Notes under the pieces: model-generated | Databases searched by the model: none | Told to the model about the DNA's origin: nothing | The model's input: the letters and a program-made list of their open reading frames with translations, nothing else | DNA from: Ruania zhangjianzhongii | Lineage (GTDB): Bacteria; Actinomycetota; Actinomycetes; Actinomycetales; Beutenbergiaceae | Direction of reading: 5' to 3' | NCBI RefSeq assembly: GCF_008000995.1 | Contig: NZ_CP042828.1 | Location: 1,612,001-1,676,000, forward strand | Length of the DNA stretch: 64,000 nt | Shown: one piece after another, positions 549 to 56,737 of the stretch | Position numbering within the stretch: the stretch's first letter is position 1 | Layout of the letters: each line of letters begins with the position of its first letter | Made by a program: the position numbers and the translations under genes

Positions 549-1682
549 GTGACCGACACGACCACCTGGCGTCTGACCGGCCACCTGTTGGTCGGCGATA
601 CCGGGGAGCGCGCCGGTGTGGCCGCAGGTGGTGGGGCCCTCGAGCGCCCAGAGGCTTGGGTGCACCGCGGACGGTGGACGTTCACCGACCCGGGGGTCGA
701 GGCTGTCACTGTGTCCGGGTACGTGCTGCCCGGGCTCGTGGACGTGCACTGCCACATCGGCCTGGGCGACCAGGGGCCGGTCGACCGGGAGACCTCGTTG
801 GCCCAGGCGAGAGCCGACCTGCAGGCCGGCACCCTGCTGGTGCGCGATGCCGGCTCGCCGGCGGACACCCGGTGGCTGGACGGACGCACCGATGCGCCCC
901 GGATCCTCCGGGCCGGTCACCATCTTGCCCGGCCGAAGCGGTACCTGCGCTACTACGCCCGAGAGCTCGACGAGGTCACCGACCTGCCGACCGCGATGGC
1001 CGAGGAGGCCGACCGTGGCGACGGTTGGGTGAAGATCGTCGGCGACTGGATCGACCGCGCCCGGGGTGGGGACAGTGTGCTGGAGCCGCTCTGGCCCACG
1101 GACCAGCTGCGTGCTGGGGTGGCCGCCGCGCACGAGCGGGGCGCCCGGGTCACCGTGCACACGTTCGAGACCGAAACCTCGGCGCAGATGCTCGACGCCG
1201 GTGTCGACTGCATCGAGCACGGTACCGGGATGACGGCCGAGCAGATCGAGCGCGCTGCAGCGGCCGCGATCCCGGTGGTGCCCACGTTGCTGCAGATCGC
1301 CCGGTTCGGTGCGATCGCGGACCAGGGGCGGGCCAAGTACCCGCGCTATGCGGAGCAGATGCGCACGATGCATGCTCGGCGCTACCAGCACGTGCGGGAC
1401 CTGCACGAGGCCGGTGTACCACTGCTGCTCGGCACCGATGCGGGCGGGACCATCCCACACGGTCTGATCGCCGCGGAGGCGGCCGAGCTGGTCCAGGCCG
1501 GTGTGCCGGCGGCCGACGTGGTGGCGGCGGCGAGCTGGCGGGCCCGGGACTACTTAGGGGTTCCGGGGATAGCCGAGGGAGCGATCGCGGACGCGGTGGT
1601 CTACGCCGACGACCCGCGGACCGACATCGGGGTGCTTGCCCACCCGGATGCAGTGATCCGCGCCGGTGTCCGGGTGCGCTGA
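549..1682 (+). CDS. Amidohydrolase family protein (imidazolonepropionase-like)
   Basis: A 377-residue metal-dependent hydrolase of the amidohydrolase superfamily. The visible metal-site signatures are VDVHCHIG (HxH on strand 1, near residue 64), a lysine in WVKIVGDW, the histidines in VTVHTFE and CIEHGTG, and the strand-8 aspartate in LLGTDAGG. The substrate cannot be read from the sequence; relatives act on cyclic amides or dipeptides. The GTG at 549 is chosen because it lies 4 bp after the ffh stop and gives the usual short beta-sandwich N-terminus; the same frame is open further upstream but only as a shadow of ffh. The last codons and stop are part of a 27-bp direct repeat. Confidence 0.85.
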   Translation: MTDTTTWRLTGHLLVGDTGERAGVAAGGGALERPEAWVHRGRWTFTDPGVEAVTVSGYVLPGLVDVHCHIGLGDQGPVDRETSLAQARADLQAGTLLVRDAGSPADTRWLDGRTDAPRILRAGHHLARPKRYLRYYARELDEVTDLPTAMAEEADRGDGWVKIVGDWIDRARGGDSVLEPLWPTDQLRAGVAAAHERGARVTVHTFETETSAQMLDAGVDCIEHGTGMTAEQIERAAAAAIPVVPTLLQIARFGAIADQGRAKYPRYAEQMRTMHARRYQHVRDLHEAGVPLLLGTDAGGTIPHGLIAAEAAELVQAGVPAADVVAAASWRARDYLGVPGIAEGAIADAVVYADDPRTDIGVLAHPDAVIRAGVRVR

Positions 1683-1739
1683 CCGGGTTCCCGCCCGTCG
1701 TCTCGCGCTGGTGCGCCGGTGTCCGGGTGCGCTGACCGG
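1660..1739 (+). repeat. 27-bp direct repeat spanning the amidohydrolase stop codon
   Basis: Bases 1660-1686 and 1713-1739 are identical over 27 bp. The first copy contains the last seven codons and the TGA of the amidohydrolase gene, so the second looks like a duplicated gene end. It is one of eleven such arrays at gene ends in this window. Confidence 0.9.
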
Positions 1740-1880
1740 ATCCTCGGCACCGGGGACTCCCGCATCACCCCCGCACGGCCGCCTCCGCGCGGATTCGATA
1801 TTTCCAACGCCCAGTAGTGCGCGCCGAGCACGGCACAGCGTGCCAGGTAACGCATGGATCGATTCACGCGGAAAAGAGGG

Positions 1881-1926
1881 TTGACCCGCCGTCAGTTCTA
1901 TGGTTCATTAGTCGAGTAATGAACCA
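1881..1926 (+). promoter_or_regulatory. Promoter and palindromic operator of the GntR/ABC operon
   Basis: The 260-bp gap 1683-1942 holds no gene. TTGACC at 1881-1886 is a plausible -35. A perfect inverted repeat follows, tggttcatta (1901-1910), spacer gtcgag, taatgaacca (1917-1926), covering the expected -10 region. Its position just upstream of a YtrA-type regulator suggests that the regulator binds here and represses its own operon. An AGGAGG-like ribosome binding site (ggaggt) lies at 1933-1938 before the ATG at 1943. Confidence 0.75.
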
Positions 1927-1942
1927 ATGAACGGAGGTCAGC

Positions 1943-2302
1943 ATGTTCGACGGGCGTGACCCGATCTACGTGCAGATCGCTGACCAGATCAGGGCCGACG
2001 TGATCGCCGGACGGCTCCGAGAGGAGGAGCAGGTGATGTCCACCACCCAGTACGCGCAGACGTTCCGGATCAACCCGGCCACTGCAGCCAAGGCATTCGC
2101 CGAGCTGGTCGACGACGGCGTGCTCTACAAGCGTCGCGGTGTCGGCATGTTCGTCGCATCGGGCGCCTACGACCGGCTGCGCGGCAGTGGTCGGAAGGAG
2201 TTCTTCACCGACCGGCTCGACCCGGTCCTGGCCGAAGCCCGCGACCTCGGGATCAGCACCGCCGAGATCCTCGCCCACATCAACGCCACGGAGGAGTCAT
2301 GA
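1943..2302 (+). CDS. GntR-family regulator, YtrA type
   Basis: A 119-residue transcription factor with an N-terminal winged helix (about residues 5-75; typical signatures PIYVQIADQI and NPATAAKAFAELVDDGVL) and only a short C-terminal dimerisation helix. This is the architecture of the small YtrA subfamily, which commonly controls ABC-transporter operons in response to cell-envelope stress. The stop overlaps the next gene's ATG (ATGA), so it is translationally coupled to the first ATPase. The start is backed by GGAGG at good spacing. The ligand is unknown. Confidence 0.9.
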   Translation: MFDGRDPIYVQIADQIRADVIAGRLREEEQVMSTTQYAQTFRINPATAAKAFAELVDDGVLYKRRGVGMFVASGAYDRLRGSGRKEFFTDRLDPVLAEARDLGISTAEILAHINATEES

Positions 2303-3201
2303 CCGCACCGAGTGCAGCACCGCTGGATGTCCAGCTGCGAAACGTGCGCGCCGACTACGGCTCGACCACCGCTCTGGACGGCGTGGACGTGAACATCCCG
2401 GCCGGAACGATCACCGGCCTGCTCGGCCGCAACGGGTCCGGCAAGACCACGATGCTCTCGCTGATCGCCTCGCTGCGCCGGCCCACTGCCGGCCAGGTGC
2501 TCGTCGGCGGCGAGGATCCGTTCGAGAACGAGACCCTGATGGAGCAGATCTCTCTGACCCGGGAGTCCGGCGATGTGCTCTCGGACGAGAGCCTCGCCGT
2601 CAACCTTCGTTATGCGGCCGACTCCCGCCCCAGCTGGCACGGCGATCTGGCGGGGCGGGCGCTGGAGATGTTCCAGCTGCACCCCAAGCGGGTGGTGCAG
2701 AAGCTCTCCCGCGGCCAACGGTCCGCCTTCGGTGCCGTGCTGGGCCTGGCTACCCGGGCGCCGGTCACCATGCTCGACGAGGTCTACCTCGGCATGGATG
2801 CACCCTCCCGATACGCCTTCTACGACCTGTTGCTGGAGGACTACCTTGCCTGCCCGCGCACGATCATTCTGTCCAGCCACCTGATCGTGGAGATCGAGCG
2901 GTTGCTGGAGCACGTGGTGATCCTCGACCGGGGCGGGGTCCTCGTAGCCGAGGAGTCCGAGAGCCTGCGGAGCCAAGGACTCCAGGTCACCGGCCGCAGC
3001 AGCGACCTGGACGCCCTCCTGGCTCGGCTGGACGGGATCACCATCCTCGCCACCCGGTCCCTCGGGCCCACCAGCCAGATCACGCTGACCGGAACCACCG
3101 AGCGGCTCCGGGCGGCCGAGACCGCAGTGCGCGCGGCAGGAATGGACGTCTCCGGCGTGAACCTGCAAGACCTCTTCGTCCACCTCACCGGGAGTTCCTG
3201 A
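2299..3201 (+). CDS. ABC transporter ATP-binding protein (YtrB-like)
   Basis: A 300-residue ABC ATPase. Walker A is GLLGRNGSGKTT (about residue 40), the signature is LSRGQRS, Walker B is VTMLDEVYLGMD and the H-loop is ILSSHLIVEIE. The degenerate signature (LSRGQ instead of LSGGQ) and the C-terminal regulatory domain of about 80 residues resemble ATPases partnered with YtrA-type regulators. It overlaps the GntR gene by 4 bp, and its TGA shares a base with the ATG of the following membrane protein, which is its likely partner. Confidence 0.88.
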   Translation: MTAPSAAPLDVQLRNVRADYGSTTALDGVDVNIPAGTITGLLGRNGSGKTTMLSLIASLRRPTAGQVLVGGEDPFENETLMEQISLTRESGDVLSDESLAVNLRYAADSRPSWHGDLAGRALEMFQLHPKRVVQKLSRGQRSAFGAVLGLATRAPVTMLDEVYLGMDAPSRYAFYDLLLEDYLACPRTIILSSHLIVEIERLLEHVVILDRGGVLVAEESESLRSQGLQVTGRSSDLDALLARLDGITILATRSLGPTSQITLTGTTERLRAAETAVRAAGMDVSGVNLQDLFVHLTGSS

Positions 3202-55198: not shown

Positions 55199-55276
55199 GC
55201 GTCACGTCGGCTTCCGTCCGGAAGGACTCATCAAAGCGCGTGTCTTGGTCGGCTGGCGGTTCATCGCCCGGTTCCG

Positions 55277-55305
55277 CTGACAAGTGCGCTCCCGCCTGTT
55301 ACGTT
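55277..55305 (+). promoter_or_regulatory. Promoter of the bacteriocin-like cassette
   Basis: CTGACA (55277-55282), a 17-bp spacer and TACGTT (55300-55305). Expected start near 55312, then GGGGGAGG before ATG 55344. The gap 55199-55343 also has a weak hairpin, cttcc-gtcc-ggaag (55211-55224), perhaps the ftsK terminator. Confidence 0.6.
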
Positions 55306-55343
55306 CGACGCACGAAGTCCAGAACGTACCGGGGGAGGTACCG

Positions 55344-55478
55344 ATGTACTATCTACTGTTTGACTCCAGCTGTGCTGGTTGCTCTGAGTTGGCTGCCATG
55401 TGTCGAGATGCGAGCCACGGCGACATTGAAGCTCGGTCGCTGTATGATCCGCGGAATAGCAGTCTAATAGCAGTCTAA
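55344..55478 (+). CDS. DCC/thioredoxin-like fragment, cut off by an 11-bp duplication
   Basis: A 44-residue reading frame starting MYYLLFDSSCAGCSELAAMC. DSSCAGC resembles the DxxCxxC redox motif of DCC-type (DUF393) thiol oxidoreductases, but the domain is too short to be complete. GGGGGAGG stands before the ATG. The frame ends at TAA 55476-55478 within a tandem repeat, and the stop shares its last base with the ATG of the next gene (TAATG). Removing one 11-bp copy makes it continuous with that gene (…NSSL-MAVDQ…), whose first 50 or so residues read like the rest of the domain. It is therefore either a broken N-terminus or a coupled mini-gene. Confidence 0.6.
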   Translation: MYYLLFDSSCAGCSELAAMCRDASHGDIEARSLYDPRNSSLIAV

Positions 55479-55487
55479 TGGCAGTCG
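55455..55487 (+). repeat. 11-bp tandem duplication causing a frame break
   Basis: aatagcagtct at 55455-55465 and 55466-55476, then the variant aatggcagtcg at 55477-55487. The copy number decides whether the two ORFs of the cassette are one or two. Confidence 0.92.
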
Positions 55488-56458
55488 ATCAACTTCGTGC
55501 CGACGAGCCCATACTAGTTGACTCGACGAATGTGGGCCTGCCGCGATCCTATCGCGGATTGCCTATGTTGATGCGTCTTATTGGGATTGTTGGACCCGCG
55601 AACGGCTTCGCGATTTATCGACGAGCACGCGAACTATCAGATTCAACTTCGCCGATTCGTGATCTCTTGTCCCGACGTTCTCTCATCAAAGGTACAGCTG
55701 TCGCTGGAGCTGCTGGCCTCAACGTGGCGTTCGGCGCTTCCGCCGCCTTCGGAACTGTGGACGGCGAGTCGCGTCCTTCTGATGTGATGTCTGGCTTCAC
55801 GTCCGACGCCGCGGTGCAACGACTCATCGAGTTCGCGGCTCAGCTTGGGTTAGTAGCGGATGCAGCTGGGAGTCCGGTCGCCCCTATTCCGGAGGTGGAA
55901 CGCGAGGGTTCCCGCGCTTTCGCGGTCACCTTGCTCCTTCTGGACCAGGGTGGCAATGTGGGAGGCTTCATTTCTGGTGTCACGAGTGAAGGCGGCGTCC
56001 AGCGCTTACAAATGGGCCACAAGCACCACGAGACCTCGCGTTTGGACTTCTTCTCAGTCATCGATGGCGAAGTTGCGCAAGACAATGTCACCGTATGGAG
56101 CAGTTCTGATACCTCGAGGGTGGCTGAGACCCTTGAAGGTCAATTCATCATGGAGGTCGATGAAGCAGCGTTCGAGGAACTGCTCGACAGTGACACATTG
56201 ACACAACAAGGCGCTTTAGCCGCCTATGGGAACGGGCGCACGGTGGCCCCTGCGTGGACTATGAGTTGTAGCGATTGCCGCTACTGGGTCGGTGCGATTT
56301 GCTCGGTAGGGTGTTCACTCGGTGGTGCGTTGGTCGTTGCACTCCTCTGTGGACCAGCCGCGCCGGTATGCATCGCGATTGCGACAGCGGCCTACGCGAT
56401 CGCTTGCTACGGCACAGGTCCTATAAGTGTTGATGCACGATGCAAGGCGTACTGCTGA
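55478..56458 (+). CDS. Tat-signal protein with halocin C8-like cysteine-rich C-terminus (bacteriocin precursor candidate)
   Basis: 326 residues. Residues 1-55 resemble the second half of a thioredoxin-like domain. A twin-arginine signal follows, SRRSLIKGTAVAGAAGLNVA (RR at 66-67, hydrophobic to about 92). Residues about 93-255 are a soluble pro-region. The last 67 residues carry nine cysteines: CSDCRYWVGAICSVGCSLGG, then a hydrophobic stretch with three more, and CYGTGPISVDARCKAYC. The spacing C-x2-C-x7-C-x3-C with GCS..GG matches halocin C8 as I remember it. In halocin C8 the precursor is Tat-exported and the pro-part acts as immunity protein. Codon use is AT-richer than in neighbours (about half G+C in one line counted). 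No Shine-Dalgarno at ATG 55478; translation would depend on coupling. A non-toxic secreted protein cannot be excluded. Confidence 0.7.
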   Translation: MAVDQLRADEPILVDSTNVGLPRSYRGLPMLMRLIGIVGPANGFAIYRRARELSDSTSPIRDLLSRRSLIKGTAVAGAAGLNVAFGASAAFGTVDGESRPSDVMSGFTSDAAVQRLIEFAAQLGLVADAAGSPVAPIPEVEREGSRAFAVTLLLLDQGGNVGGFISGVTSEGGVQRLQMGHKHHETSRLDFFSVIDGEVAQDNVTVWSSSDTSRVAETLEGQFIMEVDEAAFEELLDSDTLTQQGALAAYGNGRTVAPAWTMSCSDCRYWVGAICSVGCSLGGALVVALLCGPAAPVCIAIATAAYAIACYGTGPISVDARCKAYC

Positions 56459-56461
56459 TCG

Positions 56462-56614
56462 ATGATTCTCACCGGATTTTGCTTCCTAGCCGTTGGTGGA
56501 GTGCTGGCGCTATTGTCGCGCAGCAGGAAGAGCCTGTATAAGTGGACAAGCGGCGCCCTGATCTTCGCTGGGGTTGGTCTAGTCGTGTTGATCATCGGAT
56601 TCTTGTTACGGTGA
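56462..56614 (+). CDS. 50-residue two-helix membrane peptide (immunity candidate)
   Basis: An ORF starting 3 bp after the bacteriocin-like gene. Helix one is ILTGFCFLAVGGVLALL (residues 2-18), the loop SRSRKSLYKWTS is basic, and helix two is GALIFAGVGLVVLIIGFLL (31-49). This is a hairpin with a positively charged cytoplasmic turn. Such small membrane proteins next to bacteriocin genes often give self-protection; here that is inferred from position and shape only. Codon use is as AT-rich as in the upstream gene. The gap 56615-56737 after it shows no gene. Confidence 0.65.
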   Translation: MILTGFCFLAVGGVLALLSRSRKSLYKWTSGALIFAGVGLVVLIIGFLLR

Positions 56615-56737
56615 GAAACATGAATGTTCGCCGGGAGCAGCGCAGTACGGCGGTGTAGGCGTGCCAGGACCATCTCGAGTGAGTTCGTACATCATGCGAC
56701 TCGGTGGCGCCCTGGGTCCAAGATCCACCGGCTGGGC

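What the first reader, a model, noticed from the sequence alone, without database searches (positions are those of the whole stretch)
55277..56614. Halocin C8-like bacteriocin cassette in an actinobacterium
Seen: a promoter, a CxxC redox-like mini-ORF, a 326-residue protein with SRRSLIK Tat signal and a nine-cysteine C-terminal segment, and a 50-residue membrane hairpin, all within 1.3 kb of AT-richer DNA between ftsK and pgsA. Known: haloarchaeal halocin C8 is Tat-exported with an N-terminal immunity part and a cysteine-rich mature peptide. Inferred: this is a bacterial relative with its own redox and immunity partners.
Basis: partly seen in the sequence, partly recalled or inferred. Interest (0 to 1): 0.9.

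Follow-up and report, generated by a model that had tools for sequence, protein, structure and literature searches.

The report
Split Tat-exported halocin-like bacteriocin precursor
An actinobacterium carries an inserted gene whose relatives appear to encode one self-contained antimicrobial precursor (a disulfide-handling domain, an export signal and a cysteine-rich peptide in one chain), but here the first domain is split over two reading frames.

Summary
The three ORFs are real, but the CxxC mini-ORF is not a partner gene. A profile of 16 related N-terminal domains (window left out) matches the mini-ORF at positions 3-39 and the start of the 326-aa ORF at 51-95. One thioredoxin/DCC1-like domain is thus split over two frames; the break lies at an 11-nt tandem repeat. 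In most relatives opened (Actinomycetota, Thermomicrobium, Chloroflexi) this domain starts a single protein: CxxC domain, internal Tat signal, pro-region, cysteine-rich core. Cores differ; some are fulvocin C-related. The window core is the one most like halocin C8: same first four-cysteine spacing and TIGR04449 14.1 bits, but the cut-off is 24. A small membrane ORF follows, as in 7 of 14 precursors against 4 of 100 other genes. None of seven genus mates has the cassette at this place; the closest shows an empty site. Best reading: an acquired, probably damaged copy of a modular Tat bacteriocin precursor whose fused redox domain would form disulfides before export. The mechanism is inferred. 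NCBI already models bacterial halocin C8-like proteins; nine paper searches showed no description of the redox fusion.

The parts
55277..55305 (+). promoter-like CTGACA-17-TACGTT pair
   Evidence: read; not listed by the consensus scan; unproven
55331..55338 (+). Shine-Dalgarno-like GGGGGAGG before the mini-ORF start
   Evidence: sequence; no such motif seen by eye before 55478
55344..55478 (+). first half of a thioredoxin/DCC1-like CxxC domain (44-aa frame)
   Evidence: matches positions 3-39 of profile A9, 36.2 bits, 0 of 5000 shuffles reach it; 45-50% identical to the L037 N-terminus
55455..55476 (+). two perfect 11-nt direct copies at the frame break
   Evidence: one of 17 perfect tandem duplications of period 8-20 in the window
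55478..56458 (+). 326-aa ORF: second half of CxxC domain, Tat signal, pro-region, cysteine-rich core
55496..55633 (+). second half of the thioredoxin/DCC1-like domain (residues 7-52)
   Evidence: matches positions 51-95 of profile A9, 15.9 bits, 0 of 5000 shuffles reach it; seen again at E 0.275
55667..55747 (+). Tat signal (about residues 64-90)
   Evidence: PF10518 20.3 bits, E 5e-4, residues 64-81, cut-off 22.7
55748..56260 (+). pro-region, no family match
   Evidence: similarity to the archaeal halocin pro-region not separable from chance (2 of 200 shuffles reach it)
56261..56455 (+). halocin C8-like cysteine-rich core, 9 Cys, spacing 2-7-3-11-6-11-11-3
56462..56614 (+). 50-aa ORF with two hydrophobic segments, candidate immunity or accessory protein, starts 3 nt after the precursor stop
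55199..56734 (.). stretch absent from the closest relative (48 nt there)

Best explanation
It is an acquired, split copy of a modular bacteriocin precursor. In unbroken relatives one protein carries, in order, a thioredoxin/DCC1-like CxxC domain, an internal Tat signal, a pro-region and a C-terminal cysteine-rich core (shown by sequence). The inferred mechanism: the CxxC domain stays in the cytoplasm and forms or isomerises the disulfides of the core; Tat, which takes folded proteins, then exports pro-region plus core; proteolysis frees the core, which attacks competitors, probably at the membrane; the small membrane protein encoded directly downstream, or the pro-region as in halocin C8, protects the producer. 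In the window the core is halocin C8-like, and the CxxC domain is broken between two frames at an 11-nt tandem repeat, so this copy probably does not make the fused enzyme.
For: Both halves of the domain are present and adjacent. Single-frame relatives with CxxC domain, RR Tat-like motif and Cys-rich end: L037, L042, L058/L096, L061, L062, L082, L084, L097. A model of the domain (L097 with three relatives, pLDDT 83.0, pTM 0.73) has the thioredoxin order of strands and helices, with the CxxC at the start of the first helix; Foldseek lists mostly thioredoxin-fold proteins, best a thioredoxin at E 6e-3. By sequence 28 of the 34 PDB matches of the domain profile are thioredoxins (best E 0.0094), with CxxC and the conserved proline in register. 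DCC1-like PF04134 matches 5 of 16 members. The same domain sits on fulvocin C-related bacteriocins. Core similarity to halocin C8. Shine-Dalgarno seen at 55344 only. Small membrane ORF downstream in 7 of 14 precursors against 4 of 100 other genes, p 2e-5. TatC in the genome. Empty site in the closest relative.
Against: No experiment. The halocin match is below the curated cut-off; pairwise, two of three archaeal sequences (713 and 665 of 5000 Cys-fixed shuffles reach the score) and the bacterial halocin-like L008 (224 of 3000) are not clearly above chance. The second half of the core spaces its cysteines differently (9 Cys, not 10). In the fold search no match reaches E 0.001 and the TM-scores are low (0.29-0.45 on the query among the 50 listed). 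The model of the 326-aa protein failed (pLDDT 35.6). Tat signals normally sit at the N-terminus (recalled); an internal one after about 100 residues is unusual. L040 and L055 have the CxxC domain but no Tat-like motif. 7 of 14 precursors have no small membrane ORF within 150 nt.
Confidence: 0.6

Rival explanations
1. Working split gene: the 44-aa frame and the 326-aa frame overlap (TAATG) and are translated in tandem, giving two polypeptides that reassemble, or only the Tat-exported half is needed.
For: Stop/start overlap and close coupling of the third ORF. In L098 (Chloroflexi) the whole CxxC domain and the Tat-core part lie in different frames.
Against: In the window the break falls inside the domain, between profile positions 39 and 51, not between domain and Tat signal; no Shine-Dalgarno is seen before 55478.
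Confidence: 0.22
2. One reading: three separate genes, namely a redox helper, a halocin C8-like precursor and an immunity hairpin.
For: Three ORFs in a row; halocin-like core.
Against: The mini-ORF is a truncated domain whose other half begins the next ORF; single-chain relatives.
Confidence: 0.1
3. The core is a cysteine-rich peptide of another type, and its likeness to halocin C8 is convergence of Cys-rich, glycine- and alanine-rich helices.
For: Sub-threshold score; uneven pairwise tests; four cores of the same precursor family scanned alone do not match TIGR04449 nor the archaeal profile; its second half aligns with the L037 core, though not above shuffles (806 of 3000).
Against: Identical first four-Cys spacing 2-7-3 in the three archaeal sequences compared; against the archaeal HMM and profile, Cys-fixed shuffles rarely or never reach the score.
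Confidence: 0.25
4. The frame break is an assembly or sequencing error and the gene is whole.
For: Only one sequence of this locus is held.
Against: The genome is in 2 contigs and scored 100% complete; an 11-nt tandem copy is not a typical homopolymer error (recalled). Other tandem duplications of this size occur in the window.
Confidence: 0.15

Closest known systems
Halocin C8 precursor / TIGR04449 halocin_C8_dom (haloarchaea)
   Same: Tat signal, long pro-region, C-terminal cysteine-rich core with the same first four-Cys spacing, and a small 2-TM ORF directly after it in two of the loci
   Different: Below the TIGR04449 cut-off; 9 Cys and different spacing in the second half; the archaeal proteins read show no CxxC domain
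TIGR04450 Gpos_C8_like and NF040679 halocin C8 precursor-like proteins
   Same: Show that bacterial halocin C8-like precursors are already catalogued. L008 of the same class matches NF040679 at 75 bits (cut-off 200) and TIGR04449 at 23.6 bits (cut-off 24); it was over that cut-off, 28.7 bits,
   Different: The window protein does not match TIGR04450 or NF040679
NF033852 bacteriocin fulvocin C-related proteins
   Same: L040 and L055 carry the same N-terminal CxxC domain and match NF033852 at 74 bits, cut-off 35; 5 of 14 plasmid records matched by L037 are annotated so under the match
   Different: Different core; the window protein does not match NF033852
DCC1-like thiol-disulfide oxidoreductases (PF04134) and thioredoxins
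   Same: CxxC, conserved proline, register and predicted fold order
   Different: Fused in front of a Tat signal and peptide core; below the Pfam cut-off

Membership tests
halocin C8-like (TIGR04449) | score at or above the curated cut-off of 24 bits | tested here: not met
   14.1 bits for residues 262-326; no match with the whole protein nor in the own genome
halocin C8-like (TIGR04449) | Tat signal ahead of a pro-region and C-terminal Cys-rich core | tested here: met
   motif and order read from the sequence; profile PF10518 20.3 bits, E 5e-4, a little below its cut-off of 22.7
halocin C8-like (TIGR04449) | Cys pattern of the core | tested here: inconclusive
   first four Cys 2-7-3 identical; later spacing and number (9 against 10) differ
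halocin C8-like (TIGR04449) | pro-region acts as immunity protein | not testable with these tools
   function untestable; by sequence 2 of 200 shuffles reach the pro-region score
halocin C8-like (TIGR04449) | antimicrobial activity | not testable with these tools
   needs an assay
fused CxxC-Tat-Cys-rich precursors (described here) | N-terminal thioredoxin/DCC1-like domain | tested here: met
   both halves match profile A9, but in two frames
fused CxxC-Tat-Cys-rich precursors (described here) | single open frame | tested here: not met
   frame break at the 11-nt repeat, 55455-55478
DCC1-like PF04134 | score above gathering cut-off 27.8 | tested here: not met
   no match for the window pieces; best relative 22.3 bits
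thioredoxin fold | thioredoxin-like arrangement of the N-terminal domain | tested here: inconclusive
   model of relatives only; right element order and mostly thioredoxin-fold matches, but E above 0.001 and low TM-scores
NF033852 fulvocin C-related | score above cut-off 35 | tested here: not met
   no match for the window protein or core
TIGR04450 Gpos_C8_like | score above cut-off 27 | tested here: not met
   no match

The most novel reading that the evidence does not exclude
There is an undescribed, widespread class of 'fold-then-export' bacteriocin precursors in which a thioredoxin-like enzyme, a Tat signal and an exchangeable cysteine-rich core are one polypeptide. The enzyme installs the disulfides in the cytoplasm of the producer, so that Tat can export an already folded peptide, and is removed with the signal. 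The window is a halocin C8-type member caught in the act of losing its enzyme frame.
Probability: 0.4. Interest if true: 0.8.

Novelty: new variant of a known kind. Interest (0 to 1): 0.6.

Why it matters
Tat exports folded proteins, so a disulfide-rich peptide sent through it must form its disulfides in a reducing cytoplasm. A redox domain built into the precursor would be a self-contained answer, could be tested directly, and could be a general handle for producing cysteine-rich antimicrobial peptides. It also links fulvocin C-related and halocin C8-like bacteriocins of bacteria through one shared N-terminal module that sits in front of very different cores.

Tried and rejected
Direct relatives of the whole 326-aa protein: none confirmed. 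Class: 6 of 394 genomes with a match, one of them the own genome; of the five others only L003 was opened and looked like chance; L004-L007, E 5e-4 to 8e-4 in the Tat/pro stretch, were not opened. Family: 8 of 24 genomes at E up to 1, own included; of the nine other places L016, L017 and L018 were opened and rejected, six (L010-L015) were not opened. Also none in genome contigs, viral contigs, plasmids (one weak place, E 0.3, not opened, core, none, DNA, none) or phages (core only). TIGR04449 in the class: 2 of 394 genomes; L008 is kept, L009 looked by eye like a wrong hit. TIGR04450 in the phylum: 0 of 396.

Mini-ORF search: 20 of 325 genomes at E up to 0.1, own included, 21 places. I opened 11 (L037-L040, L042, L044, L048, L049, L053-L055) and kept five (L037, L040, L042, L049, L055); nine were not opened. 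Profile A2 in the order: 24 of 396 genomes at E up to 0.01, own included. I opened 13 places; 7 (L057-L063) have the domain in an open frame, the other six looked like chance or ordinary DCC-type proteins; ten were not opened. A2 contains G030, so that hit is by construction. Plasmid records matched by L037 (14 records): 7 opened (two of them through hits); L085 looked like chance. Left out of A9: L049 (much like L040 and L055), L081 (domain looks incomplete), L083 (domain lies largely ahead of the annotated CDS). L098 and L099 are in A9 although their genes have frame breaks later on.

The 14 precursors of the downstream-ORF count leave out L040, L055, L059, L060, L083, L086, L087, L099 and L103; L101 and L102 are close kin, so not independent; L098 has a 93-aa hydrophobic ORF but further than 150 nt away, and L091 one that overlaps; neither is counted. 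PDB sequence search of the window protein and core: nothing credible. PHROGs: nothing credible. The 326-aa structure model was uninformative. Profile comparison of mixed relatives with the archaeal proteins gave nothing; the signal is in the window core alone. The shuffle tests on the core are post hoc: the likeness was seen before it was tested. In one search some archaeal targets were cut too short; one search repeats three with the whole domain.

Full report
What is in the sequence. The stretch 55277-56614 holds three ORFs on the + strand: 44 aa (55344-55478), 326 aa (55478-56458) and 50 aa (56462-56614). The first has a clear Shine-Dalgarno-like stretch, the second starts inside a TAATG stop/start overlap with none seen, and the third starts 3 nt after the second stops. 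The ORFs have GC3 of 0.48-0.68, against 0.87-0.90 in three neighbouring genes.

Insertion. None of the seven other held genomes of the genus has the cassette at this place: tblastn of its three ORFs (E up to 1e-3) against about 6 kb after ftsK finds none, while ftsK and pgsA match in all seven. In the closest (L029, ftsK end 90% identical) ftsK is followed by 48 nt where the window has about 1536 nt, 55199-56734. Elsewhere in the family only weak, mostly Tat-stretch matches to the 326-aa protein were listed; three of nine were opened and rejected. Profile A2 finds nothing in the seven genus mates at E up to 0.01.

The mini-ORF is half a domain. A search with the 44 aa alone found L037 in the same order (E 1.1e-5), where it is the start of one 302-aa protein: CxxC domain, RRTFLM Tat signal, pro-region, 8-Cys C-terminus. 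More single-chain members came: L042, L058/L096 (Haematomicrobium sanguinis), L061, L062, L097 (Chloroflexi MAG), and on plasmids L084 (Thermomicrobium roseum) and L082 (Rubrobacter radiotolerans). L086 and L087 (Streptomyces plasmids) have a lysine variant, RK, of the Tat motif (read by eye) and 8-Cys cores of nearly the same spacing; the record names L087 'bacteriocin fulvocin C-related protein'. L040 and L055 have the CxxC domain and an NF033852 fulvocin C-related part at 74 bits, cut-off 35, but their RR pairs are not Tat-like. L059 and L060 have the domain and a Tat-like motif but no Cys-rich end. A profile of 16 such domains, window left out (A9), matches the mini-ORF over positions 3-39 (36.2 bits) and the start of the 326-aa ORF over 51-95 (15.9 bits); 0 of 5000 shuffles reach either. 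Run over the whole genome at E up to 1 it lists just these two pieces, side by side, at E 6.7e-8 and 0.275. The break coincides with two perfect 11-nt direct copies; such duplications are not rare in the window (17 of period 8-20).

What the domain is. Against PDB sequences the profile lists 34 at E up to 10; 28 are named thioredoxin, best E 0.0094, with the CxxC and the 'PTL' proline in register. In Pfam, DCC1-like PF04134 matches 5 of 16 members, best 22.3 bits, cut-off 27.8. A model of the L097 domain with three relatives reaches pLDDT 83.0 and pTM 0.73 (two of five models are good, the other three 45-53): strand, helix starting at the CxxC, strand, helix, two strands with the conserved proline just before the first, helix, helix. 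Foldseek lists 670 matches at E up to 10, none at 0.001; best is a Thermus thioredoxin (E 6e-3, TM 0.36), and the listed top 50 are mostly thioredoxins, protein disulfide isomerases, KaiB-like and glutathione transferase entries (thioredoxin-fold by recall). A thiol-disulfide oxidoreductase fold is therefore likely but not proven, and the window's own split copy was not modelled as a domain.

What the core is. Residues 262-326 match one NCBIfam family, TIGR04449, at 14.1 bits (E 0.073, cut-off 24). I fetched archaeal halocin C8-like proteins. In the three complete ones the first four cysteines have the same 2-7-3 spacing as the window; two of the three are close kin. Against an HMM of these three the core scores 9.8 bits; 19 of 10000 Cys-fixed shuffles and 2 of 10000 free shuffles reach that. 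By hhalign the core alone scores 41.9 and 0 of 200 Cys-fixed shuffles reach it; the pro-region alone 19.6, 2 of 200 reach it; the two together 46.3, 1 of 200. Pairwise the result is uneven: Haloferax lucentense 30 of 5000 Cys-fixed shuffles, the other two 713 and 665 of 5000; bacterial L008 224 of 3000. Of the relatives, the cores of L037, L096, L097 and L098 scanned alone, and L061, L062, L082 and L084 scanned whole, do not match TIGR04449, nor does the L042 core; five relatives do not match the archaeal profile. So the window is the halocin-like member, among those compared, of a family with exchangeable cores. It has 9 Cys, an odd number; of the other 13 non-archaeal cores listed, 12 have even numbers and one (L082) has 11.

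The third ORF. A small ORF with a hydrophobic segment lies within 150 nt downstream of 7 of 14 precursor genes (window, L082, L084, L095, L097, L101, L102) against 4 of 100 other genes in the same sequences (Fisher p 2e-5, which treats related loci as independent). Two of the seven are archaeal halocin-like loci with a 68-aa two-helix protein 20-25 nt downstream. It is a reasonable immunity or accessory candidate, nothing more.

Mechanism. Halocin C8 is exported by Tat as a 283-aa precursor and matures to an immunity peptide and a 76-aa peptide (PMC11509114, passages seen). The host has TatC. That Tat takes folded proteins is stated in abstract starts listed (PMC6350376, PMC10924467). From this I infer that the N-terminal CxxC domain prepares the disulfides before export. 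Shown: the order of parts, the split in the window, the difference from genus mates. Inferred: the redox role, its place in the cell, processing, killing, immunity.

Novelty. Bacterial halocin C8-like proteins are already modelled by NCBI (TIGR04450, NF040679), and L008 in the same class resembles them: NF040679 75 bits (cut-off 200), TIGR04449 23.6 bits and 28.7, over the cut-off of 24. I found no paper on the CxxC-Tat-core fusion in nine searches (listings and abstract starts, plus passages of two papers); most subscription papers are not held, and one article on archaeal antimicrobials that I looked for was not held.

Frame breaks elsewhere. In L098 the CxxC domain and the Tat-core part lie in different frames, and in L099 the Cys-rich part lies in another frame than the rest (both drafts). 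In Halobacterium NRC-34001 the halocin-like CDS is short and followed by an ISH30 transposase. Decay of these genes may be common.

The scores of L008 were completed with their cut-offs, the uneven pairwise controls and the unopened loci were added, a habitat that no call supports was removed, and a model and fold search of the domain were added.

Noticed in passing
L033 (genus mate) 811-2514, minus strand: In one genus mate the ftsK-CapA gap holds a long minus-strand ORF that looks like a flavin-dependent monooxygenase (label recalled) instead of SRPBCC/ArsR, and L030 has no CapA match; the stretch after ftsK looks like a spot of gene turnover.
   Followed up: partly
L082 2567-3964 and L084 1-1675: S8 family serine peptidases are annotated a few genes upstream of the Rubrobacter and Thermomicrobium precursors; possible maturation proteases.
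   Followed up: no
L084 5030-8037: Five small proteins in a row follow the Thermomicrobium precursor; by eye all look like membrane proteins, and the first two pass the hydropathy test (the others were not tested).
   Followed up: no
L103 2389-4712: Halocin C8-like CDS shortened next to an ISH30 transposase on a Halobacterium salinarum plasmid.
   Followed up: no
L008 1507-2274: A halocin C8-like precursor of the same class (NF040679 75 bits, cut-off 200) with a 36-aa one-helix ORF 7 nt downstream and, further on, an ORF that looks like a transposase (by eye).
   Followed up: partly
L099 5001-6100: Fodinicola feengrottensis CxxC-Tat protein whose Cys-rich part lies in another frame; could be a draft error.
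   Followed up: partly
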